This document shows positions 41,165 through 62,087 of a DNA stretch of 64,000 nt, piece after piece. Numbering within the stretch: the stretch's first letter is position 1; each line of letters begins with the position of its first letter. Both the position numbers and the translations under genes were made by a program. The notes beneath the pieces were generated by a model that made no database searches, was not told the origin of the DNA, and saw only the letters and a list, made by a program, of their open reading frames with translations. Origin of the DNA: Ruminococcus sp. (lineage in GTDB: Bacteria; Bacillota; Clostridia; Oscillospirales; Ruminococcaceae). Where the stretch lies: positions 1 to 64,000 of the forward strand of contig JAFXXD010000002.1 in NCBI GenBank assembly GCA_017542475.1, read 5' to 3'.

Positions 41165-41228
41165 GTACTTAAAATTCAGTTGTTCTATGAAAGCTAATTC
41201 ATAGCATAGAAAAAGGAAAAGTAACAGG

Positions 41229-44251: not shown

Positions 44252-44264
44252 AGGAGGTATCTTT

Positions 44265-45275
44265 ATGGAAAAAATGATGAATGCTATGCTAACCGCTTCA
44301 ATACTGGCAAGTTACAGCATTATGCCGTTTAATGTTAATGCCACGGATATTCAGGTTCCTGTTGCACAGGTAAGTGAAGCTGAAGAAGCTAACGGAATCT
44401 CTGAAAAGCTGAAAAATGATATTGAAGCAGGATTGGACAAAATCAATGTTACAATGTGGTGCGTATTCAAATACGACCATAAGTCGATAATCGCTGAGTC
44501 TCAAGCGGCGGCCGCAGAATATGAAGCTACACTGGATACATCAGTGTATTCAGCAGAGCAGATTACTGAGATGGTAGGAGAATACAAAAATATCTTTTCT
44601 GAAAACAAATACCACGAAGCAGATTTGGTGATACAAAAAGAAATATGTGATTTTATAGGTATAGACGTTTCAGATGCTGAGTTTAACGGTGCAAGGTTGA
44701 TATGCTCTCTGACTCCTGAACAAATATCCAGAATTGCAGGAACAGAATATCTCAAAGGTGAGATTATCGAGCAGTCAGAATTCGTTTCGGGCGATGAATT
44801 GGGCTATGAGCATTTTGATGTAAGTAATTCCTTAACGGTAAAGGAAGTGCAAGCATTATTCAACAAGTATTTTGAAGAAAACAACATGGATGCAAAATGT
44901 GTGACAAGCATAAACTATCCGCTCGATTATCCCTCTCTTGTTATAGAATATGTTCTTGAAACAAATACAATAACGGGTCCGCAGATAGTTGAATTCGCGG
45001 AGAAAAACAGTATAGACCGTACATTATTCACTGTTGCACCCATCGAAAACGGGGTTCCAATGATAAGAAGTGATGTCGACGTTAATGTTCATGGAGACGC
45101 AAATTGTGATGGAAAAACAACAGTTGCTGATTCGGTTGCAATATTGCAGCACATCGCTAACCGCGACAAGTATGGGCTCTCTTCGCAGGGGCTCATTAAC
45201 GCCGACGTTGATGGAGAGGCTGGCGTGACCGCAAATGACGCACGTGCTTTACAGGAATGGGACGCAAATAAATGA
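44265..45275 (+). CDS. Secreted dockerin protein with propeptide/inhibitor-like domain
   Basis: 336 residues. The signal peptide (about 1-27) is followed by a helical domain. At about 125-160, the block NGARLICSLTPEQISRIAG matches the C-terminal part of a subtilisin-type propeptide (I9-like). The C-terminus carries two calcium-loop repeats (HGDANCDGKTTVADSVAILQ and NADVDGEAGVTANDARALQE), a dockerin. GGAGG ribosome site, 13 bases after the anti-sigma-like gene. It may be a scaffold-bound inhibitor or chaperone of the subtilisin encoded next. The function is inferred from domain similarity and order. Confidence 0.75.
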   Translation: MEKMMNAMLTASILASYSIMPFNVNATDIQVPVAQVSEAEEANGISEKLKNDIEAGLDKINVTMWCVFKYDHKSIIAESQAAAAEYEATLDTSVYSAEQITEMVGEYKNIFSENKYHEADLVIQKEICDFIGIDVSDAEFNGARLICSLTPEQISRIAGTEYLKGEIIEQSEFVSGDELGYEHFDVSNSLTVKEVQALFNKYFEENNMDAKCVTSINYPLDYPSLVIEYVLETNTITGPQIVEFAEKNSIDRTLFTVAPIENGVPMIRSDVDVNVHGDANCDGKTTVADSVAILQHIANRDKYGLSSQGLINADVDGEAGVTANDARALQEWDANK

Positions 45276-45305
45276 TAATTAGAATTAATTCTCCTTATTA
45301 CCGAG

Positions 45306-45339
45306 GCAGCGGCACCCACTATTAGGTGCCGCTACTTTT
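45306..45339 (+). terminator. Terminator of sigma/anti-sigma/dockerin operon
   Basis: AGCGGCACC (45308-45316) and GGTGCCGCT (45325-45333) form the stem, followed by ACTTTTC. Its stem is nearly identical to the terminator at 48285-48319. Confidence 0.85.
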
Positions 45340-45401
45340 CATACTAAAACTAACTATTATAACAGCATTTGTCTTAGAGAAGATACATGGAGCATTTTGT
45401 G

Positions 45402-45469
45402 GTAGTTCGTGACACAAATGTGTATTTCGTGCCAATTAAGTTGACATATAAATGATATCATTACATAAT
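45402..45469 (+). promoter_or_regulatory. Promoter and shared box of subtilisin gene
   Basis: GTAGTTCGTGACA (45402-45414), a second TTTCGTGCCA (45425-45434), TTGACA 45441-45446, 17 bases, CATAAT 45464-45469. Confidence 0.65.
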
Positions 45470-45647
45470 GAAATAAACAATTATTTTTGAGAAGATAGGC
45501 TGCTAATAGAGATTAGCAGTAAATATGTTTTATAATGCCATTAATATGGAATGCTTGGAGGGGATACCAATGTATAGTAATTTAATCATATTGATCTCAT
45601 AATAGCATAATAAGATTCATGGATTTGTAATTAATCAGGAGGTTTTT

Positions 45648-48134: not shown

Positions 48135-48267
48135 TATGAGGTAATCACGCTTGTAAACTATGATACTTGTAAGAGATATGGGGAATATCTTAACGGCGAC
48201 GGAAAAGGTTGATCCCTCCGCTACTTCATTTGAACTTGTTGAGTATCCCCCAAAAGCTACCGAATAA
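48135..48267 (+). pseudogene. Frameshifted coding remnant
   Basis: Reading from just after the subtilisin stop gives YEVITLVNYDTCKRYGEYL then NGDGK. Shifting frame at about 48208 continues as DPSATSFELVEYPPKATE and a stop. The NGDGK word recalls a dockerin loop. It looks like the tail of a second secreted protein lost by deletion and frameshift. Confidence 0.45.
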
Positions 48268-48284
48268 CTCTCCTCCATATTACC

Positions 48285-48322
48285 AAAACAGCGGCACCTA
48301 TTTCGGGTGCCGCTGTTTTATA
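48285..48322 (+). terminator. Terminator after subtilisin region
   Basis: AAAACAGCGGCACC (48285-48298) pairs with GGTGCCGCTGTTTT (48306-48319). A duplicate of the terminator at 45306. Confidence 0.9.
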
Positions 48323-48409
48323 GCCGACTCTTTGACTTCTCGTATTGAGAAGCCCAAGAGTCAGCTTTTTTGCACATATATTTTTTTATTAGACAAGGAG
48401 GTCGATAAT

Positions 48410-49405
48410 ACGGCATGGAAGAAAAAGCTCACGACGCAGCAGAAAGCTGAGTACAAGGCTGAGAAGCGTGAGGAGATGCAAGAGATGTTCAAACAGATTG
48501 ATGACGGCGTTAAGGCTGTTTTCGAGTCTGATAAATACAAGGAATGCCTGCGATATATGAGTAAGTTCACGAATTACTCCGCAGGCAATTGTATTCTCAT
48601 TATGCTCCAGAAACCCGATGCAAGCCTTGTTGCGGCGTTCGGCAAGTGGAAGGAGCTCGGCAGGACTATCAACAAAGGAGAAAAAGGCATAGCGATACTT
48701 GCTCCGATGAAGTTTAAGTCCAAAGAAGTCGAGGAACAGTTCGTCAAGGACAGCAGTGGAAATCAGATTTACAACGCTGACTGTTCTGAGAAAAAGGAAA
48801 AGGTCGAGGTAGAGCAAACCTCCATAGGCTTCAAAAAGGTATATGTTTTTGACGTATCACAGACCAGCGGTGAGCCAATACCCGAATACGTCCACGAACT
48901 GAACGAGGACATCGAGGACGAACACGTTGAGGCAGTTATATGTGCTGTACGAAGCGTTACAGGGCTTCCTGTCGGGTTTGAGGACATCGACAGCGGCGCA
49001 AAGGGATATTACAGCTACAGTGAGCACCGAATAGCGATACAAAGCGGTATGAGCGGCGCACAAGCCGTTAAAACTGCTATTCACGAATGCGCTCACGCCC
49101 TGCTGCACGATCCCGATAAGAAGCTCCCGACTGCCAACTCCACCCGAAGTGATAAGGAGGTTCAGGCTGAATCGGTGGCATATATCGTGGCTTCAAGGTA
49201 TGGGATAGACACAAGCGAATACAGCTTCCCATATATAGCCTCATGGAGTCAGGGAAAGCAGCTTGAACAGCTCAACCGCTTTTTGAATGAGATTCAGGAG
49301 ATTGCAAGGACGATATGTGATGCCATATACACAGAGCTTCAAGCTCTGTCAGAAAATCAAACAGAAGAACTGACCGAGGACGAGTTTCTCGGTCTTGCTA
49401 TGTAA
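48410..49405 (+). CDS. ArdC-like antirestriction/metalloprotease protein, non-ATG start
   Basis: About 331 residues if it starts at the ACG at 48410, nine bases after AAGGAGG. No in-frame ATG/GTG/TTG lies at a suitable distance; the nearest upstream frame runs through a terminator. The N-terminal half (KKLTTQQKAEYKAEKREEMQ...NYSAGNCILIMLQKPDASLVAAFGKW...KGEKGIAILAPM) is the ArdC ssDNA-binding domain. The C-terminal half carries the zinc motif HECAHALLH and QAESVAYIVASRYGID, as in ArdC/IrrE-like peptidases that help conjugative elements evade restriction. First gene of the conjugative-element remnant. Its base composition is closer to the host than its neighbours. Confidence 0.82.
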   Translation, partial: TAWKKKLTTQQKAEYKAEKREEMQEMFKQIDDGVKAVFESDKYKECLRYMSKFTNYSAGNCILIMLQKPDASLVAAFGKWKELGRTINKGEKGIAILAPMKFKSKEVEEQFVKDSSGNQIYNADCSEKKEKVEVEQTSIGFKKVYVFDVSQTSGEPIPEYVHELNEDIEDEHVEAVICAVRSVTGLPVGFEDIDSGAKGYYSYSEHRIAIQSGMSGAQAVKTAIHECAHALLHDPDKKLPTANSTRSDKEVQAESVAYIVASRYGIDTSEYSFPYIASWSQGKQLEQLNRFLNEIQEIARTICDAIYTELQALSENQTEELTEDEFLGLAM

Positions 49406-49417
49406 GGAGATGAGAAA

Positions 49418-49750
49418 ATGAAGATCGAAACCGTGAAAGCTCCTGTCACAGCGAGCGAAAAGCGACTGCTTGATGTCATATCCAAAGCCGCGGACAGGAT
49501 AGCTACCTTTGCACATCTCGGACAAAGGGAATTTTCCATAGAAGATGTGCTCGATGAACTGGACTGCGGCTACCACGATATAAAGAGGATGATACGGGAT
49601 TCAGCCGCGGAAATACTGAAAGAAAAGCCCGATATATCCGCTGTTGTGGTGAGCGACTTGGATCTCCCCTGTCAGCCTGATATTACAGTAACAATAAAAG
49701 AGGAACAGGAAATGACCGCTGATGAGGATATCGGCGGTCTATCTTTTTAG
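49418..49750 (+). CDS. Conjugative-element protein of unknown function
   Basis: 110 residues, starting 12 bases after the ArdC-like gene with AAGGAG. Helical N-terminal half (ASEKRLLDVISKAADRIATFAHLGQREFSIEDVLDEL) and an acidic C-terminus. Unknown; judged real from spacing and ribosome site. Confidence 0.65.
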   Translation: MKIETVKAPVTASEKRLLDVISKAADRIATFAHLGQREFSIEDVLDELDCGYHDIKRMIRDSAAEILKEKPDISAVVVSDLDLPCQPDITVTIKEEQEMTADEDIGGLSF

Positions 49751-49759
49751 GAGGAATTA

Positions 49760-50218
49760 ATGAAAGCAAGATTACTGAAACTGAAGCTCTTCTCCCCGAT
49801 AATTGTAAAGGGAGAAGTTCCATACGAAAACCCGTGGGACGGCGGCGATGACTACCGCGTACTTGTGGAAACGGAAAAGAGAAAGTGCAGGGACGAGATA
49901 TATGTGAACGCCTGTGAAGCCCTCGCTCCTGTTGTTCTGCCGCATCCCTTTGAACGCCGCATTTTCTCTGCCGTTCCCGTCGTTGAAGAAAAGGACGGGA
50001 GGCTCATGCTGTTGCTCAACTGTGAATGCTACCGCCGCCTTTCCGAGGCGGAGCTCGACGAGCTGTGCGACTGGTGGGAGAATACAGTCGCGGAAGCAAG
50101 CGAGGAGCTCAGCAAGAGGCGTATCAAGACCAAAAAACTCGGCGGAATATTCATTTACCTGTGGTTTATGAGCGGCTGGGCAATAGAGCCGGTGTACCCC
50201 GAAAAGGAAGGAGACTGA
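49760..50218 (+). CDS. DUF6329-like conjugative-element protein
   Basis: 152 residues, N-terminus MKARLLKLKLFSPIIVKGEV resembling a family of small proteins found beside DUF4314 in Firmicute integrative elements. No catalytic motif. GGAGG ribosome site, 9 bases after the previous gene. Confidence 0.6.
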   Translation: MKARLLKLKLFSPIIVKGEVPYENPWDGGDDYRVLVETEKRKCRDEIYVNACEALAPVVLPHPFERRIFSAVPVVEEKDGRLMLLLNCECYRRLSEAELDELCDWWENTVAEASEELSKRRIKTKKLGGIFIYLWFMSGWAIEPVYPEKEGD

Positions 50219-50221
50219 TAT

Positions 50222-50491
50222 ATGAGAGTACCAAGCAGAAATGAAGTTGAAAGCTATCGCAGTCGTTACCCTGTAGGAACAAGAATATGCTGCGACAGTA
50301 TGTCCGATGATCCAAGACCTGTTCCTTCGGGAACTATGGGAACTGTTATCGGAGTTGATGATATGTGCAGCATTATGGTGAAGTGGGATAACGGGCAAGG
50401 GCTTTCCCTTGTTCCCGGAGTTGACAGCTTCCATGTCATATCTCAGGAGGAAAGCGAATCCGAGGAAGCAGATATGGAGATGCAGATATGA
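50222..50491 (+). CDS. DUF4314 domain protein
   Basis: 89 residues. RVPSRNEVESYRSRYPVGTR, PSGTMGTVIGVDD and IMVKWDNGQGLSLVPGVDSF match the small SH3-like DUF4314 family of conjugative elements. The end overlaps the next start by 4 bases. Confidence 0.85.
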   Translation: MRVPSRNEVESYRSRYPVGTRICCDSMSDDPRPVPSGTMGTVIGVDDMCSIMVKWDNGQGLSLVPGVDSFHVISQEESESEEADMEMQI

Positions 50492-50838
50492 AGGTCAATG
50501 CCCAGGAAGAAAGCTTCGAGCTTATGGAAATGCTCGGACAGCGCGTGCTGTTCACGAATATGAGGGTCGACCGCGATACCGTCCCTCAAGACCTCTATGT
50601 ATATGAGGTCAGGCACGACGATGACTGTACAGGAGAGATATGTGAAATAAAGCCGTCTGTAATGGTCAATCACTGGGGAACGATGATCTGTAAAGAGCCC
50701 ATTGAACTTGACACCAAATGGAACAGCAGATTCGTCGATAAGAACGACTACAGCTATCTCGGCGACGATGTTAAGCTTGATGAATATATAAATACGGACT
50801 GCTGTGAAGCTGAGTCCGAGGAAATGAAGATGATATAA
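50488..50838 (+). CDS. LPD28-like protein
   Basis: 116 residues. LYVYEVRHDDDCTGEICEI and VMVNHWGTMICKEPIEL resemble the LPD28 (large polyvalent protein associated) domain, a module of mobile elements. Overlaps DUF4314 by 4 bases and the next gene by one base, so translation is coupled. Confidence 0.75.
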   Translation: MKVNAQEESFELMEMLGQRVLFTNMRVDRDTVPQDLYVYEVRHDDDCTGEICEIKPSVMVNHWGTMICKEPIELDTKWNSRFVDKNDYSYLGDDVKLDEYINTDCCEAESEEMKMI

Positions 50839-51077
50839 TGGCAGAGAAGAACAGACCGCTATGCCCGATAATAGGGGCTGACGGCAACATATTCAATATC
50901 CTTGGAATGGCTTCAAGGACGCTGAGACGAAACGGTATGGCTGATGAGGCACAGGAGATGTACAGCCGCGTGACTTCATCGGGCAGTTATGAGCAGGCGC
51001 TCTGTATCATTACCGAATACATAACGCCATGCAGTCAGGAAGAACTCGAAGAGGACAGCCTATCCCAGCAGTATTAG
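50838..51077 (+). CDS. Small mobile-element protein
   Basis: 79 residues with CPIIGADGNIFNILGMASRT LRRNGM-type sequence, found next to LPD domains in Firmicute elements. Start overlaps the stop of the previous gene (TAATG). Function unknown. Confidence 0.7.
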   Translation: MAEKNRPLCPIIGADGNIFNILGMASRTLRRNGMADEAQEMYSRVTSSGSYEQALCIITEYITPCSQEELEEDSLSQQY

Positions 51078-51198
51078 GCTGCTGTTAATATAAATATTTC
51101 AAAAACAGCGACGGCTCGGCATTTATGCCAATCTCGGAGCGATAAAGGAGGAATGAAATATGAATACGTCCTGATAACCTTTGAGGGAAGGAGGTCGT

Positions 51199-51396
51199 AT
51201 GCAGACACGCAAAAGATACGAAAAAGCAAGCGTTGTGCTCGGCGGTGATATACCGTCTATGCTGAGAAAGGCAAAGACTGTCCTGTCGCATAAGCAGTAC
51301 CACGAGCTTTGTATCGCCGTTGACGACGCGGCAGACTATACTACAAAGAAAGGAATGATAATCGCCTGTTTACAGGCAAAGAAAAATAATTTTTGA
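51199..51396 (+). CDS. Small mobile-element protein
   Basis: 65 residues from the ATG at 51199 (AAGGAGG upstream); basic, helical (RKAKTVLSHKQYHELCIAVD). Unknown. It lies just before the chimeric methylase. Confidence 0.6.
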   Translation: MQTRKRYEKASVVLGGDIPSMLRKAKTVLSHKQYHELCIAVDDAADYTTKKGMIIACLQAKKNNF

Positions 51397-51487
51397 GCCG
51401 CTTGCCGGGAGCAGAAATGTTCCGAGTAAGCGGCTTTTTCTGTTTCCGGCGCTTCATTTTTGATAAAAAGCGGCGGAAAGGAGATGT

Positions 51488-52285
51488 ATGAATAGTTTCA
51501 TGTCGTGGGTGGGAGGCAAGAAGTCTCTCCGTGACGAGATATTGATACGTTTTCCGCTTGACTATGAGCGGTATATTGAGGTTTTCGGCGGTGCAGGCTG
51601 GGTGTTGTTTCACAAAACGCCCGAAGCGTTCGAGGTTTTCAACGATGCAAACAGCAATCTTGTCAATCTCTATCGCTGTGTACGCAAGAATCCCCGAAAA
51701 CTCATTAAAAAGCTCATGTTTATGATAAATGCGCGTGATGACTTCCGCTGTATCGTTGAACAGCGCAGGAGAGGTCTTTTCGCCCGTTTCCGCGATTACG
51801 ACCGAGCCGCGAAGTTCTATTACCTCATACAGTACAGCTACGGTCATAAGACAGACCAGTACTGCTGCAAGCCTGTTTCGATGTGGAAGAAGTTTCCACT
51901 TATCGAACGAGCCGCGGCACGACTGCAAAGCGTAGCCATAGAGAACAGGGACTTCGAGGCGCTCATCAAGCTCTATGACAGACCGAACAGCTTCTTTTAT
52001 GAAACTGCAGGCACGTATGCAAGCCAAGGAACTAGCGAGTTTGCAAAGCTGTTTGATGAGGAAGAACAGCTCAGTCAGACGCTGATTTCGCTTAAATCAA
52101 AGGCTGATTTCGAGCAAAATAAGCTCGCCGAGGAATTAAAAGCTGAAATTGGTAACACGCCTTTCCGACTTGAAGAATATGATGATGTCCTTGTACGGAA
52201 GGTTGTTGAATGTGTAAAAGTGCTAAATATTGAGGAGATATCGGTTACTTTCAAGGGCGGGTACGAGATAAAGTCCAATTTATAG
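51488..52285 (+). pseudogene. Chimera of Dam-type adenine methylase N-half and serine-recombinase C-terminus
   Basis: 265 residues in one frame. Residues 1 to about 170 follow D12-class DNA adenine methylases (SWVGGKKSLRDEILIRFP, YIEVFGGAGWVLFHK, FNDANSNLVNLYRCVR, YDRPNSFFY). The catalytic DPPY that should come next is missing. From about residue 171 the sequence changes to EFAKLFDEEEQLSQTLISLK...EYDDVLVRKVVECVKVLN and EISVTFKGGYEI, the C-terminus of large serine recombinases. The methylase is therefore dead, and the recombinase that mobilised the element is reduced to its tail. This is best explained by one deletion joining the two genes. Confidence 0.82.
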
Positions 52286-52646
52286 GCTTGTTATAATTAT
52301 AAGCACTCGCCCTGAGGACAGGCATTGTTTTTAGAAGAAAAATCCAAATCTCAGCGAATACAGCTGCTTTTGATGCGATATGCCTACAAGAAGATTGGAT
52401 ACCACTAACAGGGCCAAAATAGCCAAATAAAAGATGTCAGTGCAGCGAAATATAGCTTGTCATATCGATATGAGTAGTACAAATACTTATTATTTATCAA
52501 AACGGTTGATTTTTTCTTTGGAATATAGTATAATAGAAAATGGATAAGTGTATTACTTTCTTCAATATAGCGTATAATTACAGTATTTAATATGATTTGT
52601 AAAAAATATAAAGAAATTATGATTGTATAGAAAAGGAGTTAATACT
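52286..52646. other. AT-rich gap after conjugative-element remnant
   Basis: 361 bases with no gene. A promoter lies at 52506-52534. The left part may contain the far end of the deleted element, but no inverted repeat or attachment site is visible. Confidence 0.5.
52506..52534 (+). promoter_or_regulatory. Promoter of AAA-ATPase/nuclease gene
   Basis: TTGATT 52506-52511, 17 bases, TATAAT 52529-52534. Confidence 0.75.
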
Positions 52647-54203
52647 ATGGGTATATACCTTAATCCTGATAATATAGATTTTCAGGAAGCTTTGAATTCA
52701 AGGATATATATTGATAAAACAGGATTAATGAAGTATACGAACAGTGTAATTAGAACGGAAGATAAATATATTTGCGTTAGCAGACCAAGAAGATTTGGAA
52801 AATCAATGGCGGCAAATATGCTTGTTGCTTATTATAGCAAAGGCTGTGACTCTAAAGAGATGTTCAGCAGTTATAATATTTCTAAAGATACATCATTTGA
52901 AAAGCACCTAAACAAATATAATGTGATTCATATTAACATGGTCAATTTTATAGATAGAAAGAAATCAATATCCGAATCACTTTTAAATCTGAATAATAAG
53001 ATTATTCGGGAACTAAAGAAGGAAAATGATAACGTTGACTGTTCAGACTGGAACGATTTGGTTTCTGTTTTGGGTGAAATATTCAATGAGAAACGTATTC
53101 CATTTGTATTTGTAATTGATGAATGGGATTGTGTTTTTAGAATGTTTAAGGATAGTAGCGCCGAACAAACAGAATATCTTGATTATCTTCGTAATCTTCT
53201 AAAGAACCAGAAATACGTTGCTCTGGCATATATGACAGGAATACTGCCAATAAAGAAATACGGTGAGCATTCAGCTCTTAATATGTTTACAGAGATTTCG
53301 ATGACAAATGCAGCTCCGATGCAAGAATTTACTGGCTTTACAGAGAAAGAAGTTTATTCTCTTTGTCAAGTGTATAAAAAGGATTTTAATGAGATTAAGC
53401 TATGGTATGACGGGTATAATGTTGATGGAATATCAATATACAATCCTAAATCAGTTGTAGAATGCATTTCAAGGGGAACATTCAGAAATTACTGGTCTTC
53501 AACAGAGACCTATGAAGCACTTCAAGTATACATTCAAATGAATTATGACGGGCTTCGTAAAAAAGTTGTTGATATGATAGGCGAAGAAAAAGTAAAAGTC
53601 AATATTGGAAAGTTTCAGAATGATATGACTACTTTTAATAGTGCTGATGATGTTATAACTCTTCTTGTGCATCTTGGATATCTTACCTACCATGAAAGCG
53701 AAGTTTGGATTCCTAATAGTGAGGTCAGACAGGAGTTTATTAATTCTATTGAGGATGGCGGTTGGGAGACCGTTATGAATGCAATACGTTCCTCGGACGA
53801 GTTGGTTGATGCAACGATCAATGGCGATGAAGAGAAAGTTGCTCAGATGATTGAAAAGGTTCACGATGAAAATGCTTCTATCCTAGGATATAATAATGAA
53901 ACATCGTTGAGCTGCGTCGTTTCGCTTGCTTACTATTCGGCAAGAAAAGAATATACAATTCACAGGGAACTTGCGACAGGAAAAGGTTTTGCTGATCTCG
54001 TTTTTATACCACGAAAGACATCTAATAAGCCTGCAATGGTCATAGAACTTAAGTGGGATAAGTCTGCTGATACTGCGATAGAGCAGATAAAACGCAAGCA
54101 ATATTCAGATAAGATTTCAGAATATGCTGGAGAAATTCTTCTTGTAGGCATAAACTATGATGTTGATAATAAAAAACACACTTGCATAATTCAAAATTTG
54201 TAA
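52647..54203 (+). CDS. AAA-ATPase-like/PD-(D/E)XK nuclease-like protein
   Basis: 518 residues from the ATG at 52647 (AAAGGAG upstream). The N-terminal AAA-ATPase-like domain has YIDKTGLMKYTN, a Walker A-like PRRFGKSMAANML and Walker B FVFVIDEWDCVF. The C-terminal part carries a PD-(D/E)XK core (GKGFADLVFIPRK...MVIELKWDKSADTAIEQI). The family is very common in gut anaerobes and mobile islands, and its role is not settled. Monocistronic with its own promoter. Confidence 0.9.
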   Translation: MGIYLNPDNIDFQEALNSRIYIDKTGLMKYTNSVIRTEDKYICVSRPRRFGKSMAANMLVAYYSKGCDSKEMFSSYNISKDTSFEKHLNKYNVIHINMVNFIDRKKSISESLLNLNNKIIRELKKENDNVDCSDWNDLVSVLGEIFNEKRIPFVFVIDEWDCVFRMFKDSSAEQTEYLDYLRNLLKNQKYVALAYMTGILPIKKYGEHSALNMFTEISMTNAAPMQEFTGFTEKEVYSLCQVYKKDFNEIKLWYDGYNVDGISIYNPKSVVECISRGTFRNYWSSTETYEALQVYIQMNYDGLRKKVVDMIGEEKVKVNIGKFQNDMTTFNSADDVITLLVHLGYLTYHESEVWIPNSEVRQEFINSIEDGGWETVMNAIRSSDELVDATINGDEEKVAQMIEKVHDENASILGYNNETSLSCVVSLAYYSARKEYTIHRELATGKGFADLVFIPRKTSNKPAMVIELKWDKSADTAIEQIKRKQYSDKISEYAGEILLVGINYDVDNKKHTCIIQNL

Positions 54204-54290
54204 TATATAAAACCATAAACATCTATAATTATTAAGAATGTTCCAACTTTAATATAAATCCGAAAAATGTATTATTAATAGGAGGCAAAT

Positions 54291-54914
54291 ATGAACATTA
54301 TAAATCCTTCTTTTTCCTTTAATGACAAGATTGATGGAACTGAAATATTAAAAAAAATTGAAAAAGCGGCTCGCATATGTTATAAGAGCGAAGATATGAT
54401 TACTGATGATTCTGCATATAGATTAATTAGTAATATTATAAAACGTGAGCATGAATCTGTCTTAGAACATGAGAAAATTACTGTTACCATTGTTTGTGAT
54501 AGAGGAATATCACATGAAATAGTTAGGCATAGGATTGCAAGTTATAGTCAGGAAAGTACAAGATATTGTAATTATACTGATGGTAAGTTTGGAAGTGAAC
54601 TTACTTTTATTAAACCTTGTTTCTGGAATGAATCAGATGAGAGATATCGGATTTGGTTTGAGCAAATGGAACAAATTGAAAAGAATTATTTCAGAATAAT
54701 AGAAATGGGGGCAACTCCACAGGAGGCAAGGAGCGTATTGCCTAATAGTTTAAAAACCGAGATTGTTGTAACAATGAATATTAGAGAATGGAGACACTTT
54801 TTCAAACTTAGGTGTTCAAAAGCTGCCCATCCTCAAATGAGAGAAATTGCTATAAACATGCTCGAGGAATTCAAACGTATTATCCCCATATTATTCGATG
54901 ATATCATTGAATAA
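54291..54914 (+). CDS. thyX: Flavin-dependent thymidylate synthase ThyX
   Basis: 207 residues. The ThyX motif RHRIASYSQESTRY (about 78-91) and the C-terminal FKLRCSKAAHPQMREIA are intact, with FAD/dUMP-binding residues in EHEKITVTIVCDRGISHEI. It makes dTMP from dUMP using FAD, NADPH and methylene-THF. It lies 29 bases ahead of a GNAT-methyltransferase fusion and in line with four further genes. It may serve as the cell's thymidylate synthase or supply a modified pyrimidine to this cluster; the sequence alone cannot tell. Confidence 0.93.
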   Translation: MNIINPSFSFNDKIDGTEILKKIEKAARICYKSEDMITDDSAYRLISNIIKREHESVLEHEKITVTIVCDRGISHEIVRHRIASYSQESTRYCNYTDGKFGSELTFIKPCFWNESDERYRIWFEQMEQIEKNYFRIIEMGATPQEARSVLPNSLKTEIVVTMNIREWRHFFKLRCSKAAHPQMREIAINMLEEFKRIIPILFDDIIE

Positions 54915-54943
54915 TCCACTTTCCTTTTATGGAGGTAGTTAAT

Positions 54944-56467
54944 ATGTCAATAGAATACCATTGGATGTGCGGTAATTTAGTAGAAGATGAATTATTATCA
55001 AAATGTTCCGATTTATATTCAACACAATACGGAAAATGGAGTGAAAGCTTTGGGAGTAAAGCAGGTGACAGTATTAAATTATCGGTTGATGCAATAAAAA
55101 GGTGGTTTGAAAACAATAATTCGGATTTATATTGGGCGTGTGATAAGGGCGTAATGATCGGGTACGCCATTGCTCTTAGAATTGTAACAAAGAACGGAAC
55201 AATTTCGTGGGTAACACAATTAGTGGTTCACGAGAATTATCGACATAGGAATATTGCGAAAACTATTTTACATTCTATATGGGGATTTTCAAATCATTTT
55301 GCATGGGGAATTGTCAGCGCTAATCCTTATGCAATTAGAGCTTTGGAGAAAACTACTAGAAGACGAAGTGACCCAATTAGAATTAAGCACAACATTAAGA
55401 AATTGCTCAATATTGGAATCGAGAACATTCCATATATTACAAGTGATACTGAATATGATATAAAAGATGGATTATCAGCGATAAATACTTGTTTCTATGT
55501 GGATCATTCCAATGTCGATGATATGATAGAAAGTGTGGTATCTGATACTGTTCCTTGGAAATTAGGAAGCCTTAAAGAAGGGTGGGAATGGATAGCGTTT
55601 ACATTTAATGATCAATTACCTTTCGAATTATCCGAAGAAGAGATTAATAACCTTCTTAATTCAAGCGATAAAGTTGTTCATACGGCTTATTCAAGAATGG
55701 CATTGACTCCCTCACAAAAATGGATGAATCATACGGTTAATAACGTGGATTACATTCTTGAAAACTATAATTCTGCTCCTAATGCTAAAATAATAGATTG
55801 GGGGTGTGGACAGGGAAGACACGCAATAGAATTTGCTAAAAGAGGATATAATGTAACCGCAATTGATTATATTGAAAAAAATATTGAAAACGCTTCAAAA
55901 AATGCGAATGATTCTTTAAAAATTACTTGGCTTTATGATGATTGCAGGAAAGTTGATTTACATCAACAATTCGATTTGGCGTTATGTTTATATGATGTAG
56001 TTGGAACATATACAGACGTTGAAAACAATTTATTAATACTAAAAAATATTTTTAATCATTTAAAAAAAGGGGGAGTTGCTTTTATTTCTGTAATGAATCG
56101 ACATCTAACAGAAGTGAATGCGAAGAATACTTTTATTCTGAAAGACGAACCTAACAAATTACTATCTCTTCAGCCAAGTCAAACAATGGAACAAACTGGA
56201 GATGTATTTAATCCAGATTATTATCTATTAGATACGGATACTGGCATTGTATACAGACGTGAACAATTCAGAACAGGACGTTCACTTCCTGTTGAATTAA
56301 TAGTAAGAGATAAACGTTTTTTTGATTATGAAATAGTCGGTTTATGTAAGTCGGTTGGGTTTATTGTAAATGAAGTAAGATTTGTTAATGCTGCAAGATG
56401 GGAGCAATCATTAAGTCCAATTGATCATAAAGCAAAAGAAATACTAATTAAGCTTTCTAGAGAATGA
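54944..56467 (+). CDS. GNAT acetyltransferase-SAM methyltransferase fusion
   Basis: 507 residues from the ATG at 54944, eight bases after GGAGG (an upstream ATG at 54929 overlaps that site). The N-terminal domain (about 1-180) is GNAT-like, with WVTQLVVHENYRHRNIAKTIL as acetyl-CoA-binding motif. The C-terminal domain (about 270-507) is a class I methyltransferase: IIDWGCGQGRHAIEFAKRGY as motif I, then LALCLYDVVGTY and LKKGGVAFISVM. The fusion is unusual and its substrate is unknown. Confidence 0.85.
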   Translation: MSIEYHWMCGNLVEDELLSKCSDLYSTQYGKWSESFGSKAGDSIKLSVDAIKRWFENNNSDLYWACDKGVMIGYAIALRIVTKNGTISWVTQLVVHENYRHRNIAKTILHSIWGFSNHFAWGIVSANPYAIRALEKTTRRRSDPIRIKHNIKKLLNIGIENIPYITSDTEYDIKDGLSAINTCFYVDHSNVDDMIESVVSDTVPWKLGSLKEGWEWIAFTFNDQLPFELSEEEINNLLNSSDKVVHTAYSRMALTPSQKWMNHTVNNVDYILENYNSAPNAKIIDWGCGQGRHAIEFAKRGYNVTAIDYIEKNIENASKNANDSLKITWLYDDCRKVDLHQQFDLALCLYDVVGTYTDVENNLLILKNIFNHLKKGGVAFISVMNRHLTEVNAKNTFILKDEPNKLLSLQPSQTMEQTGDVFNPDYYLLDTDTGIVYRREQFRTGRSLPVELIVRDKRFFDYEIVGLCKSVGFIVNEVRFVNAARWEQSLSPIDHKAKEILIKLSRE

Positions 56468-56530
56468 AGATGCAAATGGCTGCATTTATTGTTAAACTGT
56501 TCAATTTTGCTAACAGAAAGGAACATCGTA

Positions 56531-57463
56531 ATGGAGGACTTATATATTAATAGATGCAAAGCTTTTATCGATTTTATGCTTTCGCAACAGCAATGGTCTG
56601 GATTAACAAAATCAAATATAGATTCTTGGCTGAATAATTTTAAGGACTTAAATGTGTCCGAACAAGAATTGATTTATAAGTTATTAACAAATATTATATA
56701 TTTTTCCGAAAACGATGTTACCGAAACACTAAAGGAAGGAGTTTTTAACTGTTTATCCTACAATGAGATTCTAAAAGAACAAATTAACTCTGGTTTTTCT
56801 GTAACCGAGCATAATTTGCAATATACTCATAGAAAAAGGATTAATGAATCTTGTTTTGTTCCGTTGTTAGATAAAGACGCACCGCATGAAAGTGGTAATA
56901 ATATATGCCGAATATTGGTGCAACAAGGGATTGTTCCACAGGATAGATCCGTATTTATACATAAAGTTCCTAAATTACTTGTAGATAACCAGATAAAAAG
57001 AATAATTATAGTAGATGATTGTGTAGGTAGCGGAGACCAACTTAGAAGTTTTTGGGAAGAAACTAAAATCGAAGACAATGATGCAACATTATCTATTAAG
57101 GAATTATGCCAAAAACATGGTATTCAAGCATATTATTTAACCCTGTTTGGGTATAATAAGAGTATTGATAGGCTAAAAAAGGAATTTCCAGACCTAATTA
57201 TTCATTGTGTTCGTGAACTAAATGATAAACATAAAGTTTTCTCAGATTATTCTTACATATGGAAAGATAAATCTGAAAGGGATGAAGCTTTTAATCTAAT
57301 AGATTCACTTGCTAAAAATGCAGAGATACCTACATATGGGTATGCTTGCTTGGATTTTGCATTCATTATGCATAAAACGATTCCTGATTGGTCGTTACCG
57401 ATTTTTTGGATGGAAAGTAGTGAATGGATTTGTTTGTTGAGGAGGAAAAACTCAAATGGATAA
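56531..57463 (+). CDS. Phosphoribosyltransferase-like protein (PRTase-CE type)
   Basis: 310 residues from the ATG at 56531; an in-frame start at 56489 lies before the ribosome site and is rejected. The PRPP-loop-like RIIIVDDCVGSGDQLRSF (about 156-173) is preceded by a hydrophobic strand as in PRTases. The N-terminal about 110 residues are helical. It overlaps the ATPase gene by 8 bases. Such PRTase-like proteins have been noted beside ORC/CDC6-like ATPases in predicted conflict systems. Whether it binds PRPP or a nucleotide signal is unknown. Confidence 0.78.
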   Translation: MEDLYINRCKAFIDFMLSQQQWSGLTKSNIDSWLNNFKDLNVSEQELIYKLLTNIIYFSENDVTETLKEGVFNCLSYNEILKEQINSGFSVTEHNLQYTHRKRINESCFVPLLDKDAPHESGNNICRILVQQGIVPQDRSVFIHKVPKLLVDNQIKRIIIVDDCVGSGDQLRSFWEETKIEDNDATLSIKELCQKHGIQAYYLTLFGYNKSIDRLKKEFPDLIIHCVRELNDKHKVFSDYSYIWKDKSERDEAFNLIDSLAKNAEIPTYGYACLDFAFIMHKTIPDWSLPIFWMESSEWICLLRRKNSNG

Positions 57464-59381
57464 TCAATATAATCCTTTTAAAGAAAATAGAACAGAACAA
57501 ATGCGGGATTTGTGGAAGTACTATGTCCCTTTTTGTTGTATGGAAAGTGCTGGAAAACCATTAGTTGTAGAAGGCGGGCGCGGTAGTGGAAAGACGATGT
57601 TTTTTCAATGCAATTCATGGAGACAAAAAATACTCGAACTTAAAAAAAACAATCAATCTATAACGCTTTTTCTTGAAAATGAAGAATTTATTGGTATCTA
57701 TTATCGTGTTGATACCACATTTGTTTCTTCAATGCGAAATAGGGAAGAAGAAAATTGGAAAGGAATTTTTGAAACATATTTAGGAATATGTATAACACAA
57801 GAGATACTTGACTTGATAATTCAGTTGAGTGATTCGATGAATCTAGATTTTAAAAGATTATCAGATTTTTCATTGCGTTTTTCAAAAAAAATAAATCCAG
57901 GTAGTACTACAAATACTATCGAATCATTTCGAAATGATTGTGATACTTTTTTGGATGTAATTGAAGACAAAATAAATGGGGAAGCAAATTTAGAACATTT
58001 AAGACTTATCAATGTAAATCGGTATATTACGGATGTCTGCGCTGAAATTAGTAAAATACTAGGAAAAGAAAACCTGATTTTCAAAATATTCATTGATGAA
58101 TATGAGACGTTACAAGAATATCAACAGAGAATTGTTAATACTCTCATCAAGCATAGCACCCTTCCAGTTATTTTTAATATTGGATTGCGCCCGAAGGGGA
58201 TGAAGACTTCTGAAACTATTTCAGAAACAGAAACAATAGAAGCTCCACATGATTATGAATTGTTGTTAATTGGTTTTGAACAAAAGCAATATCCATACAT
58301 TATTAAATCGATTTGCAAAAAAAGAATTGCTCTTGGGAAAGAACAAGGTAGAATCCCAGCAAATGCTTCAGAAGACATTGAGTTTTACTTGAAATCATAT
58401 TCAATTGATTTTGAATTGGAAAAGATTTCTTCATCCAAAAATGTAATTTCTCATTTAGAAAAGTTAGAAAAGCTAATAAAAGAAAGAGCCATAGAAGAGG
58501 GTTGTACTAAAGTCGAAACGGATGAATACTGCCAGGTGCTGTGTCATAAAGCGCCCTTACTTAATTCAAGAGTGCATTATGCAATATTATGTAAGCGGAC
58601 GCCATACACTCCAAAACTTAAGGAGTTATATACATCGTATATAGCTAAGGATCGTAAATATGATGATTGGTTTCACAATAGAAAGAACGGCGCTATTTAC
58701 TTGCTATGTAAAGAATCAAAACGTGAAAAAATGTATTTTGGATTTGACGTTTTTTTGGCGCTTTCTTCTAATATAGTAAGATACTTTTTGGAGCTCTGTG
58801 AGCATTCGTTTAAATTTGCTTTTTTAAACTCTTGGGATTGGGATTCTCCAATCGCACCTGAAATTCAAACGGAAGCAGCCAAATATGTTAGTGAATATAA
58901 AATTACTGATATTGCTGGATATGAGCCTTACGGAAGAGAACTTCGTATATTTGTTCAGTATCTCGGACAAATATTTTACAGATTACACACGGTCGAAGAT
59001 AACACGCTTGGAGAACCTGAACCCAACCATTTCAACACTAAGGATTTATCAATGAAAGAAGGGACAAAAAAAATAATAGCATCTGCTATTATGTGGAATG
59101 TTCTTCAAGAAGGTGAAACAACCAAGAGAAAACGGTCTATGCTTTCTCCTGAAACAGTTGATTATTATTTGAACAAGATTTACGTTCCGTATTTTGGTAT
59201 TTCATATCGTAATCAAAGAAAAATAACGCTTTCAGTTGAAATATTAAATGGATTATTATCCGGGGATGAGGATGAAGCTCTAGGCGCATTTAGGAAATTC
59301 TTTAGAGAAAACAATTCGCCAAGTGATTATAAATATCAGCTTTCCCTTATTGACTTAGATACGGAGGAGAATGATGATTAA
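57456..59381 (+). CDS. ORC/CDC6-like P-loop ATPase
   Basis: 641 residues. Walker A GGRGSGKTMFF (40-50), Walker B FKIFIDEYETL (about 207-217), a sensor-like Asn in PVIFNIGLRPKG, then a large helical region with a winged-helix-like C-terminal part (SMLSPETVDYYLNKIYVPYFGISYRNQRKITLS). It overlaps both its neighbours, so the four genes 56.5-61.4 kb are translated as a unit. Likely the energy-using sensor or switch of the cluster. Family membership is inferred from motif spacing. Confidence 0.8.
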   Translation: MDNQYNPFKENRTEQMRDLWKYYVPFCCMESAGKPLVVEGGRGSGKTMFFQCNSWRQKILELKKNNQSITLFLENEEFIGIYYRVDTTFVSSMRNREEENWKGIFETYLGICITQEILDLIIQLSDSMNLDFKRLSDFSLRFSKKINPGSTTNTIESFRNDCDTFLDVIEDKINGEANLEHLRLINVNRYITDVCAEISKILGKENLIFKIFIDEYETLQEYQQRIVNTLIKHSTLPVIFNIGLRPKGMKTSETISETETIEAPHDYELLLIGFEQKQYPYIIKSICKKRIALGKEQGRIPANASEDIEFYLKSYSIDFELEKISSSKNVISHLEKLEKLIKERAIEEGCTKVETDEYCQVLCHKAPLLNSRVHYAILCKRTPYTPKLKELYTSYIAKDRKYDDWFHNRKNGAIYLLCKESKREKMYFGFDVFLALSSNIVRYFLELCEHSFKFAFLNSWDWDSPIAPEIQTEAAKYVSEYKITDIAGYEPYGRELRIFVQYLGQIFYRLHTVEDNTLGEPEPNHFNTKDLSMKEGTKKIIASAIMWNVLQEGETTKRKRSMLSPETVDYYLNKIYVPYFGISYRNQRKITLSVEILNGLLSGDEDEALGAFRKFFRENNSPSDYKYQLSLIDLDTEENDD

Positions 59382-60291
59382 GGAAGAATACAATTTTTCA
59401 GATATAGATGATTATTTATATAATAATATTGATATTCTCATAGCAGGATTTCCTGGATGTGAAGAACGAAGCAAGTTTTTTTCCGATTTATGGAATAAAA
59501 AGAACAAAGAAATTCTATATCTGAAAGTAGATGGCTCCGAAAAAGTTATATTAAGGTATTTGAAAAAAGACGGAACTGAAATAAATGACCAATGCGACCT
59601 TTGTGTCGAACTTCAAACTCGGTTGCGTTTCTTGGGTGTATCTGAAAAAAATGTTTTGCTTGATATTTCAAGTTTAGATAACGTTTTAATAATGTTTTTG
59701 ACAAAGCAGTTGCTTACAAAAGTGATACCAAAATTGTTATTTGCATCTTACATTAGGCCACAAAAATATAGCAGTGAGTCTGAAAACATGGGATATAAAC
59801 TCTGCCAACAGATTGGAGCTATTAACGCAGTACCAGGTTTTGCGAAAAGAGAAGCAGAGAAACAAACACTTTGTGCTTTCCTTGGATTTGAAGGAGTTCG
59901 ATTAAAAGGAATCCTTGAAACCGTACAGGGATTTGATAAACTGATTCCTATTGTTGCGTTCCCCTCTGGAAGTCCTCAGTGGTATAATATAACTATGTGG
60001 AACATTATGGATGTGTTGCAAAGCGAAGGCAAAAATACTTCTGTTTATAAATGTTATTCCGAAAGTATTTTTGATGCTGTTAAGCTTCTTGAGAAAACCA
60101 TTACTTCAGATGAAACTGTAATATTAGCTCCTCTTGGAACTCGTCCGCATTCTTTGGCATGTGCAATTTTTGCCTGCAAACATAAACGTACAAGAATACT
60201 GTATGATTTTGTTGTAGAAAATGACGACCGAGCAATTGGAATTGCAGAAATAAAAATATATCATCTTTCTTCGTTTATTATAGAACAATAG
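59371..60291 (+). CDS. Rossmann-like protein of unknown function in conflict cluster
   Basis: 306 residues; starts at tandem ATGs (59371, 59374) within the end of the ATPase gene. Alternating strands and helices: IDILIAGFPGCEERSKFF, NVLLDISSLDNVLIMFL, PIVAFPSGSPQWYNITMW, TVILAPLGTRPHSLACAIFA, TRILYDFVVENDDR. The APLGTRPHS turn after a strand recalls nucleotide- or ligand-binding Rossmann (CARF-like) folds. No known family can be named with confidence. Coupled to the methyltransferase gene by a nine-base gap. Confidence 0.7.
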   Translation: MMIKEEYNFSDIDDYLYNNIDILIAGFPGCEERSKFFSDLWNKKNKEILYLKVDGSEKVILRYLKKDGTEINDQCDLCVELQTRLRFLGVSEKNVLLDISSLDNVLIMFLTKQLLTKVIPKLLFASYIRPQKYSSESENMGYKLCQQIGAINAVPGFAKREAEKQTLCAFLGFEGVRLKGILETVQGFDKLIPIVAFPSGSPQWYNITMWNIMDVLQSEGKNTSVYKCYSESIFDAVKLLEKTITSDETVILAPLGTRPHSLACAIFACKHKRTRILYDFVVENDDRAIGIAEIKIYHLSSFIIEQ

Positions 60292-60300
60292 GAGTGGAAA

Positions 60301-61362
60301 ATGGACTATAGTAAGTTTTATACACCTCCAATTATTGCTACTGCATTAATTAATGAATTATGTATATCGGAGCCACATAAAGTAATCGATATTTGTTGCG
60401 GAAGTTGTAATTTGCTTTTGGCCGCAAAAAAAAAATGGAATAAAGTGTTACTATATGGTGTAGATCTATTTCAAAATTCTTCAGTAAAAAATGTGACATT
60501 TGAGAAAAATGATGGAAGAAAATACGCAGTTGATCATTCAAATGAGTATGAACTTGTACTAGCCAATCCTCCATTCGATTCTGTAAACAGTAAAAGGCAA
60601 TTTCCAGACTTGTTTGTTGATGAGTTTAAGAATATAACCACGTCTCGTCTCGAAATTGAAATGTTTATTGCTAATTTGAAACTCTTACAGACCGGTGGAG
60701 TGTTACTGATTATAATGCCTAGTAGCTTTGTTGAGGCTGAAAAATTTAGAAAAATAAGAGCTATTATTGCAGAAAAGTATTATATTGAAAGCATTATAAA
60801 ACTTGATGAAAATACATTTGGTTCTTCTAAAATCAATAGCTATGCCCTAATAATACATAACGAATTGCAACAAAACCGTTATACCAAAACAGCAAATGTA
60901 GTTGATAACCGATTTTACTATAAAAAGAGAATTAGTAGTCAAAGAATAAGAAATGGAACATGGAATAATGATACTATTTATACTTCTAATATACATTTGA
61001 ACATAAAAAGAGGAAATATCTCAAGTGCTTTGTTTATTTCACGAGGACAGCCCGTTTTACATACTTCCAAGTATAGTAATACATGGCAGCCAAGTATAAG
61101 GTATATTTCAAAAAAAGCTAATCCTACTGTTTGGGCTGAGGCAGGAGATATTATCGTAAGCCGAATAGGTAAATCTGCAGGGCAATGGTGTATATACAAC
61201 GGAGAAAAGACCCCAATATCCGATTGTTTGTACTGTATTAAATCTCCAGACCCATTAATTGTTGATAAAATGAAAGAAAAAAAATATAACAAAGACTTGA
61301 AAGGCGTGGCAACAAGGTATATCACCATTTCAGATTTTTATTCTTGGCTGAATTCACTGTGA
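60301..61362 (+). CDS. N6-adenine DNA methyltransferase with target-recognition domain
   Basis: 353 residues. The N-terminal methyltransferase has PPIIATALINELC, motif I VIDICCGSCNLLLAAK and motif IV LANPPFDS (NPPF, adenine N6 type). A second strand-rich block follows (GGVLLIIMPSSFVEAEKF). The C-terminal about 110 residues (WQPSIRYISKKANPTVW, GDIIVSRIGKSAGQW) resemble a type I specificity-type target-recognition domain. No restriction nuclease lies beside it. It could mark host DNA as self for the upstream ATPase. AGGAG ribosome site. Confidence 0.85.
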   Translation: MDYSKFYTPPIIATALINELCISEPHKVIDICCGSCNLLLAAKKKWNKVLLYGVDLFQNSSVKNVTFEKNDGRKYAVDHSNEYELVLANPPFDSVNSKRQFPDLFVDEFKNITTSRLEIEMFIANLKLLQTGGVLLIIMPSSFVEAEKFRKIRAIIAEKYYIESIIKLDENTFGSSKINSYALIIHNELQQNRYTKTANVVDNRFYYKKRISSQRIRNGTWNNDTIYTSNIHLNIKRGNISSALFISRGQPVLHTSKYSNTWQPSIRYISKKANPTVWAEAGDIIVSRIGKSAGQWCIYNGEKTPISDCLYCIKSPDPLIVDKMKEKKYNKDLKGVATRYITISDFYSWLNSL

Positions 61363-62087
61363 TTTTATAGTTTCTATAACTCAAAAGAGGCGTGTTTCTA
61401 TGTAGGCGGTAATTATTTTTGTGTGTTAACCACATTTGATAAGTCTTGATTTTTAACAAATTTAGATGCGATATGTGACAAAAAGTGCTACTAAGCTATC
61501 ACAAATAGGTGAGATTTGTTAGGGATTCATATCATTTCATCTCGCAGCGCCAAGCGGGCGCACGCAGTTCGCGGTTCAGTTGTTCTGAGCTGCGATTTTT
61601 TTTCCGCGCTCCAAAGCGGGTCTAAACCGTTCCACATACACAGGCGGCGTGTCGCCGCTTCCAATTCGCGCTCCACTTAATTGTGGAGCGTTAGTTTTTA
61701 TCCGCGCCTCACACCTAAAAAACGTTACGTGTCTGCTTCGAGCGGGCGCACGCAGTTCGCGGTTCAGTAGTTCTGAGCCGCGAATTTTTTTCCGCGCTCC
61801 AAAGCGGGTCTAAACCGTTCCACATACACAGAAACGCCCGATACTGATGTATCGGGCTCAATTTATAATGAATAGTGAATAATGTATAGTGAAGAGTAAA
61901 TGCTCGGAGGGCGTTTCTGTATTATTCGTTATTCACTATTCATTTTTCATTATTCACTAAAAATGCAGTCGGGTTCGCGTTTCCGTTTTTATGAAGCGCG
62001 ATTTTTATTATTTAGGGTTGCTATGAGCCGCGATTTTTTTCCTGAAGCCGCGGCGTGACTCAGCGTTGATAATAATTGGCACTTCGG
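61363..62087. repeat. Intergenic repeats at right edge of island
   Basis: 61363-61540 is AT-rich with no gene. Two direct repeats of about 91 bases follow (61553-61643 and 61741-61831), sharing AGCGGGCGCACGCAGTTCGC and TCTAAACCGTTCCACATACA and differing at a few positions. Between them lies a divergent family-B hairpin (GGCGGCGTGTCGCCGC, then CCAATTCGCG). At 61829-61965 AGAAACGCCC and GGGCGTTTCT enclose GCCCGATAC/GTATCGGGC. AATAGTGAATAATG and CATTATTCACTATT-type arms form another large hairpin. Host-like base composition resumes here. Confidence 0.8.

What the first reader, a model, noticed from the sequence alone, without database searches (positions are those of the whole stretch)
54291..61362. 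Compact six-gene cluster: ThyX, GNAT-methyltransferase, PRTase-like, ORC/CDC6-like ATPase, Rossmann protein, N6-MTase with TRD
Seen: six same-strand genes with gaps of 29 and 63 bases, then overlaps of 8 and 11 bases and a 9-base gap, all AT-rich and inside an accessory island. Known: PRTase-like and ORC/CDC6-like ATPases have been paired in predicted conflict systems, and solitary MTases with a TRD often supply a self mark. Inference: a defence system in which the ATPase, PRTase-like and Rossmann proteins sense and act, and the methylase marks self. ThyX and the GNAT-methyltransferase fusion may be extra nucleotide-modifying parts, for example acting on thymine, or mere passengers. I know of no described system with all six.
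Basis: partly seen in the sequence, partly recalled or inferred. Interest (0 to 1): 0.88.

Follow-up and report, generated by a model that had tools for sequence, protein, structure and literature searches.

The report
Methylase-linked nucleotide-attacking immune operon
A bacterium carries, on an accessory island, a four-gene operon also found in distant bacteria and archaea that looks like an antiviral system joining a DNA-marking methylase to an enzyme expected to destroy nucleotides, and such operons sometimes sit beside a gene that makes the DNA building block thymidylate.

Summary
The six genes are present with the stated spacing. In 90 tabulated ORC loci from bacteria and archaea, CARF6 adjoins in 83, a PRTase in 71, and a DNA methyltransferase lies within three genes in 78. 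Separate PRTase genes are directly upstream of ORC (70 of 70), CARF6 directly downstream (85 of 85), median overlap 4 bases. The methyltransferase is exchanged among unrelated classes; in 4 loci a phosphoesterase or HD-CE protein replaces the PRTase. I read this as methylation-linked, nucleotide-depleting abortive defence; nothing was tested at the bench. ThyX is neither core nor a general accident: ThyX, ThyA or dUTPase lies within three genes in 15 of 90 loci (16 of 480 near ORFs, 0 of 712 farther), yet only the window has it in its nine-member clade. The GNAT-methyltransferase was seen nowhere else searched and is probably a passenger. The effectors, and probably the ORC pairing, were named in print before (recalled; paper not held). 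The recurrent thymidylate link may be new.

The parts
56489..57463 (+). PRTase-CE predicted effector (core gene 1; likely start ATG 56531)
   Evidence: Pfam PF24390 1.2e-49; PADLOC PRTase_III-A models, best 1.4e-20; PRPP-type motif IIIVDDCVGSG at residues 172-182, both Asp invariant in 10 of 10 aligned
57456..59381 (+). ORC-CDC6-like AAA+ ATPase (core gene 2)
   Evidence: Pfam PF24389 7e-105; Walker A residues G40, R42, G43, G45, K46, T47 and Asp214 invariant in 57 of 57, Glu215 in 55 of 57
59371..60291 (+).
   Evidence: PADLOC CARF6 1.8e-37; D/E98 in 67 of 67, T/S100 in 65 of 67, basic residue 258 in 66 of 67
60301..61362 (+). gamma-class N6-adenine DNA methyltransferase with a C-terminal region that reads like a target recognition domain (core gene 4)
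   Evidence: Pfam N6_Mtase 5e-14; NPPF at residue 89 and DICCGSC; mean pairwise identity 56% for residues 1-215 and 58% for 216-353 in 7 sequences, window included
54291..54914 (+). ThyX, a second thymidylate synthase of the genome; recurrent optional partner of such systems
   Evidence: Pfam Thy1 3e-55, TIGR02170 147.7 bits over cut-off 87.9; motif RHRIASYSQESTR; another ThyX at G000:C2 and no ThyA match in this 94% complete genome
54929..56467 (+). GNAT-methyltransferase fusion, probably passenger
   Evidence: Pfam Acetyltransf_1 1.6e-5 and Methyltransf_25 5.6e-15; at E 1e-15 the 6 other of 297 family genomes with a match share only the methyltransferase domain at 31-37%
40780..61544 (.). 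accessory island next to tRNA-His that carries the operon (left end approximate)
   Evidence: G+C drop; same-genus locus L195 joins tRNA-His 3' sequence to window 61545 onward; ArdC N-domain, LPD28 and DUF4314 genes inside

Best explanation
The four genes at 56489-61362 are one operon for an antiviral complex. SHOWN by sequence and conservation: fixed gene order PRTase - ORC ATPase - CARF6, a neighbouring DNA methyltransferase of exchangeable class, and intact PRPP, Walker and methyltransferase motifs. INFERRED: the methyltransferase marks host DNA. The ORC-type ATPase, of a clade thought to ring DNA, works with CARF6 and is held off on marked DNA or by a resting nucleotide. Unmarked invading DNA, or a nucleotide change during infection that CARF6 reads, switches the ATPase. 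That unleashes the PRTase, which breaks or consumes nucleotides and stops phage growth, probably at the cost of the infected cell. ThyX most likely tunes or restores the thymidylate pool that the effector or the sensor depends on; in this window it is an added part, not core.
For: 90 ORC loci: CARF6 adjoins in 83, PRTase in 71, DNA methyltransferase within 3 genes in 78 (67 of 72 loci not cut by a contig end). Separate PRTase directly upstream of ORC in 70 of 70, CARF6 directly downstream in 85 of 85, median gap -4 bases. PRTase fused to ORC in L093. Methyltransferase classes by profiles seeded with Pfam-checked members: gamma, beta, split beta, C5, D12; at least 10 label changes on the ORC tree, loci without a methyltransferase counted as a class. 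The PRTase is replaced by Metallophos (L128, L053 by Pfam; L054 by similarity) or HD-CE (L129), types that fit attack on small nucleotides. HhH-GPD DNA glycosylases among the neighbours (4 of 49 scanned), which by an Fe-S motif I place beside three of the four C5 loci and the cut locus L078, fit methylated cytosine in host DNA. Scattered spread: 49 of 297 family genomes gave some match, 6 over the cut-off; 151 plasmid records; 9 viral contigs. Neighbours of some loci include NACHT, TIR, WYL, type I R-M and SspB-like genes. ORC/Cdc6 ATPases recur in defence systems and are predicted to ring DNA (passages of PMC10853773).
Against: No bench data. No solved relative of CARF6; only marginal ones of ORC and PRTase, and no structure could be predicted. 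The strict CARF signature [DN]x[ST]xxx[RK] is not met in the window (N at the last place), and only 9 of 67 aligned have K there. 5 of 72 loci not cut by a contig end have no recognised methyltransferase. 19 of 90 loci lack a recognised PRTase, 15 of them with no effector identified. The Metallophos and HD-CE loci are long branches of a quick tree, so their place is unsure. Some of the 90 loci are close kin (20 pairs over 70% identical in ORC, three pairs over 92%). No experiment links methylation to effector control. PADLOC neighbour hits had no control set.
Confidence: 0.6

Rival explanations
1. Metabolite guard: CARF6 senses a thymidylate-type nucleotide whose level rises in infection and drives the effector through the ATPase; the methyltransferase only helps, and ThyX or dUTPase sets the resting level.
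For: Thymidylate genes within 3 genes in 15 of 90 loci, 16 of 480 near versus 0 of 712 farther ORFs; at least 10 label changes on the tree; near-invariant basic residue in CARF6. Precedent: Clover, an HD dGTPase switched on by dTTP (PMC12265719, abstract and passages).
Against: 75 of 90 loci have no such gene found within three genes; a methyltransferase is far more constant. The Clover paper does not mention CARF, PRTase or phosphoribosyl (0 occurrences each).
Confidence: 0.2
2. DNA modification system: PRTase and ORC act on DNA or its precursors to build a protective mark together with the methylase; no toxic effector.
For: PRTases and thymidylate synthases are base- and nucleotide-handling enzymes (general knowledge); methylase near constant.
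Against: The PRTase place is taken by Metallophos or HD-CE proteins in 4 of 90 loci, which a base-modification step would hardly tolerate.
Confidence: 0.07
3. Selfish stabiliser: methylase as antidote and PRTase as toxin that kills cells which lose the element, as selfish restriction-modification does.
For: Many plasmid copies (151 records, 134 typed conjugative); island location.
Against: Found on large, chromosome-like contigs in several phyla as well; stabilisation and defence are not exclusive.
Confidence: 0.1
4. All six genes are one functional unit in this genome.
For: Short gaps and one strand; no terminator match on the + strand between the genes.
Against: 8 of 8 clade members lack both genes in the stretch held; the GNAT-methyltransferase fusion was seen nowhere else searched. 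Promoter-like matches occur within the stretch, at a rate about 2 SD above shuffles for the region (58 against 45.9), so separate transcription is not excluded.
Confidence: 0.05

Closest known systems
Predicted conflict systems with PRTase-CE, HD-CE and Calcineurin-CE effectors (Nicastro, Burroughs, Iyer, Aravind, Nucleic Acids Res 2023, gkad879)
   Same: PRTase-CE (PF24390), HD-CE (PF24391) and ORC-CDC6-like (PF24389) bear neighbouring Pfam numbers and all appear in this one system. The predicted chemistry, breaking free nucleotides, is recalled from that abstract.
   Different: The paper is not held, so whether it already describes the CARF6, the methylase swaps or the thymidylate link is unknown to me.
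CARF6 family (class name as in PADLOC; the source classification, Makarova et al. 2020, is recalled and not held)
   Same: Gene 5 and the relatives scanned match PADLOC CARF6 models, the best at 8.9e-126 in L033.
   Different: No Csm1 or Cmr2 (Cas10) match in this genome; the strict CARF signature is changed.
BREX
   Same: An ORC/Cdc6-clade ATPase with an adenine methyltransferase that marks self (passages of PMC12839542).
   Different: None of the 8 window proteins scanned against Pfam matched PglZ; the methylase scores 31.3 bits against a cut-off of 500 for BREX-1 PglX.
Clover
   Same: Nucleotide-destroying effector under nucleotide control, thymidine nucleotide as cue.
   Different: Two genes, HD dGTPase plus nucleotidyltransferase; no methylase, ORC or CARF component in the abstract and passages I saw.
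Retron type III-A effector PRTase
   Same: Same PRTase kind (PADLOC PRTase_III-A 1.4e-20).
   Different: None of the window proteins scanned matches a reverse transcriptase; Rfam finds only tRNAs in the window.

Membership tests
PRTase-CE / ORC-CDC6-like predicted system | PRTase-CE next to ORC-CDC6-like ATPase | tested here: met
   Pfam 1.2e-49 and 7e-105, overlap of 8 bases
PRTase-CE / ORC-CDC6-like predicted system | effector destroys nucleotides | not testable with these tools
   active-site motif present only
CARF superfamily | similarity to CARF family profiles | tested here: met
   PADLOC CARF6 1.8e-37, ten more CARF6 models below 0.01
CARF superfamily | [DN]x[ST]xxx[RK] signature after strand 4 (PMC4012209, passages) | tested here: inconclusive
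   window reads D-I-S-S-L-D-N, so the final K/R is missing; a second motif PLGT[KR]P keeps a basic residue in 66 of 67; strand assignment untested
CARF superfamily | Rossmann-like fold and ligand pocket | not tested
BREX | PglZ and BrxX/PglX-type methylase | tested here: not met
   no PglZ among 8 window proteins scanned against Pfam; 31.3 bits against cut-off 500
MADS | MAD2 equivalog | tested here: not met
   NCBIfam 13.3 bits against cut-off 720; PADLOC mad2 does match the methylase domain at 4e-15
Retron type III | reverse transcriptase and msr/msd RNA | tested here: not met
   no RT match among the window proteins scanned; no such RNA above Rfam gathering scores
Type III CRISPR signalling | Cas10 in the genome | tested here: not met
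   no Csm1 or Cmr2 match in G000, which is 94% complete
Type I restriction-modification | HsdR nuclease with HsdM and HsdS | tested here: not met
   no HsdR-type family in the lists shown for the six genes
Thymidylate synthase X | RHR-x7-S-x-R motif and equivalog score | tested here: met
   RHRIASYSQESTR; 147.7 bits over 87.9

The most novel reading that the evidence does not exclude
A widespread class of methylation-licensed immunity in which the thymidylate pool is part of the circuit: an ORC ATPase with a CARF6 sensor reads both the methyl mark and a thymidine nucleotide, and releases an exchangeable nucleotide-destroying effector (PRTase, HD or phosphoesterase), while co-opted ThyX, ThyA or dUTPase holds the set-point or rescues the host. 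No such coupling of DNA marking and thymidylate supply turned up in the listings and passages of my paper searches; the nearest prior paper was not held.
Probability: 0.2. Interest if true: 0.85.

Novelty: new variant of a known kind. Interest (0 to 1): 0.62.

Why it matters
If right, one switch (ORC ATPase plus CARF6) is fitted with interchangeable weapons and interchangeable DNA marks across bacteria and archaea, which makes the link between self-marking and nucleotide depletion directly testable. It also gives CARF6 proteins outside CRISPR a predicted role, and it singles out thymidylate as a candidate signal or target, in parallel with Clover.

Tried and rejected
Considered and rejected: BREX, MADS, retron III, type III CRISPR and type I R-M membership (features missing, see table). 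ThyX as pure chance passenger in general: rejected by 16 of 480 near versus 0 of 712 farther ORFs. Limits of that test: neighbouring ORFs and related loci are not independent; the ThyA and dUTPase profiles were built from near-core genes, so other forms could be missed on both sides; L086 gives two ORFs for one split ThyX; 3 of the 15 loci (window, L044, L050) were seeds of the genome scan, and without the five seeds it is 12 of 85. ThyX phylogeny as proof of co-evolution: rejected; the window ThyX groups with six system-linked ones, but also with three ThyX of contigs with no system in the stretch held (L169, L176, L177), and 11 other family genomes carry a similar ThyX. Hypervariable target recognition domain in the methylase: not seen over residues 216-353, though residues 201-250 are the least alike (36-42% to the window). 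Viral scan with the single window protein: nothing. CRISPR-like repeat array in 40,000-64,000: none among the 7 repeat families listed.

Rows chosen or dropped: of 153 plasmid and phage records with an ORC match, 6 were fetched for the table; of the G genomes, 7 loci. L109 and L115 were left out (same contigs as L044 and L040). Weak ORC matches (L005-L030, L036, L057, L058; mostly P-loop-sized stretches, two somewhat longer) and those without a locus were never tabulated. L041 and L127 were left out of the tree as fragments. CARF6 counts differ (83, 85) because opposite-strand ORFs masked two.
Full report
OBSERVATION. The six genes and their spacing are as stated (Pfam). The fifth gene has no Pfam match, but it matches PADLOC CARF6 models, best 1.8e-37. 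The stretch 52,001-62,000 has 31-36% G+C. It lies in an accessory island next to a tRNA-His gene. In same-genus genome G1072 (L195) a tRNA-His 3' fragment abuts the sequence that follows window position 61,544. The 5' part of that tRNA is missing in L195, so another insertion at the same place there is possible. Island genes include ArdC N-domain, LPD28 and DUF4314 proteins.

RELATED LOCI. The PF24389 search gave 49 of 297 family genomes with some match, 6 over the curated cut-off; the strong ones beside the window's own are G008, G157 (contig end) and G148. Other draws gave 4 of 398 phylum genomes and 5 of 391 class genomes at 1e-8, the window's own genome included in each. 151 plasmid records match, 130 from Klebsiella, plus 2 records filed as phage. 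One scan of genome contigs with a five-sequence ORC alignment gave 69 loci, and one of viral contigs with a ten-sequence alignment gave 9. The table of 90 ORC loci is the window, 7 loci of G genomes, 6 of the 153 plasmid and phage records, the 9 viral contigs and 67 of the 69 genome contigs, two being duplicates.

ARCHITECTURE. CARF6 adjoins ORC in 83 of 90, PRTase in 71 (one fused, L093), and a DNA methyltransferase lies within three genes in 78; among 72 loci not cut by a contig end the methyltransferase count is 67. Separate PRTase genes are directly upstream of ORC in 70 of 70 and CARF6 directly downstream in 85 of 85, both with a median gap of -4 bases. Methyltransferase classes were called by profiles built here from Pfam-checked seeds: in the 88 loci of the tree gamma N6_Mtase 54, beta N6_N4 11, a split beta form 6, C5 4, D12 2; 5 have none and 6 are cut by contig ends. 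Pfam finds HhH-GPD glycosylases in 4 of 49 neighbours scanned; by an Fe-S motif I place them at L077, L078, L086 and L096, that is beside three of the four C5 loci and at one cut locus; L129, also C5, has none within three genes. The effector is Metallophos in L128 and L053 by Pfam and in L054 by similarity, and HD-CE in L129. In 15 loci no effector was identified; 8 of these have ORC proteins above 900 residues, and the one examined, L108, has a ParA/MinD-like P-loop in front.

THYMIDYLATE LINK. ThyX (12 loci), ThyA (L072; Pfam count, protein read) or dUTPase (L033, L037) lies within three genes of the core in 15 of 90 loci. That is 16 of 480 near ORFs and 0 of 712 farther ORFs in the same stretches (Fisher p = 4e-7). 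The label needs at least 10 changes on the ORC tree, a quick tree without bootstrap and with seven long branches. It is commoner with non-gamma methylases (11 of 23) than with gamma ones (4 of 54). The window's genome has another ThyX and no ThyA match, so this ThyX is a second copy. It is the only one in the window's clade of nine, and tblastn finds none in the eight others (four of those stretches, L060-L063, end within 1 kb after the last core gene held, but reach about 9 kb upstream of the PRTase). Its tree position does not settle whether it came from another system or from a chromosomal ThyX.

GNAT-METHYLTRANSFERASE. In 297 family genomes at E 1e-15, the 6 others with a match share only a 116-162-residue methyltransferase stretch at 31-37%. 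One weak hit near a system (L067) is a plain methyltransferase. Probably a passenger.

RESIDUES. PRPP-type motif IIIVDDCVGSG, methylase NPPF, ThyX RHR motif. ORC Walker A and Asp214 invariant in 57 of 57. CARF6 keeps D/E98 in 67 of 67, T/S100 in 65 of 67 and a basic residue at 258 in 66 of 67, but the strict CARF signature is not met. Solved structures: none for CARF6; marginal matches for ORC (12 chains, best E 0.077) and PRTase (3 chains, the best two orotate and uracil PRTases, E 0.04 and 0.09).

DEFENCE CONTEXT. Neighbouring genes at some loci: NACHT and TIR, TIR, WYL and ThiF, HsdM, HsdS and YhcG. Of 143 flanking proteins found (120 printed) I chose 70; at 1e-10 they matched 139 PADLOC families, 25 of them shown, among these SspB, TIR-TM, HsdS, RtcR-CARF and PDC-S models. 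No control set was run. No Csm1 or Cmr2 match in the genome. The Klebsiella form is in 4 of 5,426 E. coli genomes, all on plasmids.

LITERATURE. Nicastro et al. 2023 was seen only in reference lists and as a citation; its abstract and the names of the effectors are recalled. Clover (PMC12265719): abstract and passages. DefensePredictor (PMC13092281): passages; it counts a thymidylate synthase among newly validated defence domains, and the legend of its figure of validated systems lists PRTase; the architectures were not seen, so a PRTase system may already be validated there. BREX survey (PMC12839542) and Dnd survey (PMC10853773): passages on ORC/Cdc6 ATPases in defence. CARF and WYL (PMC4012209): passages. 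Searches whose listings showed no paper on ORC with PRTase, CARF and methylase.

MECHANISM AND VERDICT. The order, overlaps and exchange pattern point to a complex in which ORC and CARF6 are the fixed switch, the upstream gene is the weapon and the methylase is the mark. Nucleotide attack is inferred from the effector types; control by methylation is inferred from the methylase's constancy. New, as far as I could see: the window instance, the tabulated methylase and effector exchange, and the thymidylate link, all subject to reading the 2023 paper.

Noticed in passing
window 61553-61643 and 61741-61831: Two 91-base near-identical repeats (97%) with a terminator-like hairpin, just right of the island end; similar sequence is present in same-genus locus L195.
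   Followed up: partly
window 41229-48134: Left part of the island: sigma factor, Thr-rich protein, weak dockerin match and a subtilase with lectin-like domain, not obviously related to defence.
   Followed up: partly
window 51488-52285 and 52623-54203: Dam-like D12 DNA methyltransferase and an AAA-ATPase_like / PDDEXK_9 protein upstream of the cluster; an AAA-ATPase_like / PDDEXK_9 gene also follows CARF6 in L110.
   Followed up: partly
L108:9071-11887, L097, L100, L104, L112, L116, L118, L120: ORC proteins above 900 residues with no PRTase gene found; L108 has an N-terminal ParA/MinD-like P-loop, and a related helical-looking protein is encoded upstream in several: a possible separate subtype.
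   Followed up: partly
L086:14481-15105: ThyX in an archaeal locus is split over two overlapping frames (broken gene or sequencing error).
   Followed up: no
L169: A record filed as 'Bacteriophage sp.' (MT837074) reads by eye as bacterial chromosome (cmk-like and ispH-like genes).
   Followed up: partly
L122:3315-4157: Directly upstream of an ORC without PRTase: a protein that is probably the one neighbour matching ThsA_Macro, a possible further effector type; the assignment is by guess.
   Followed up: no
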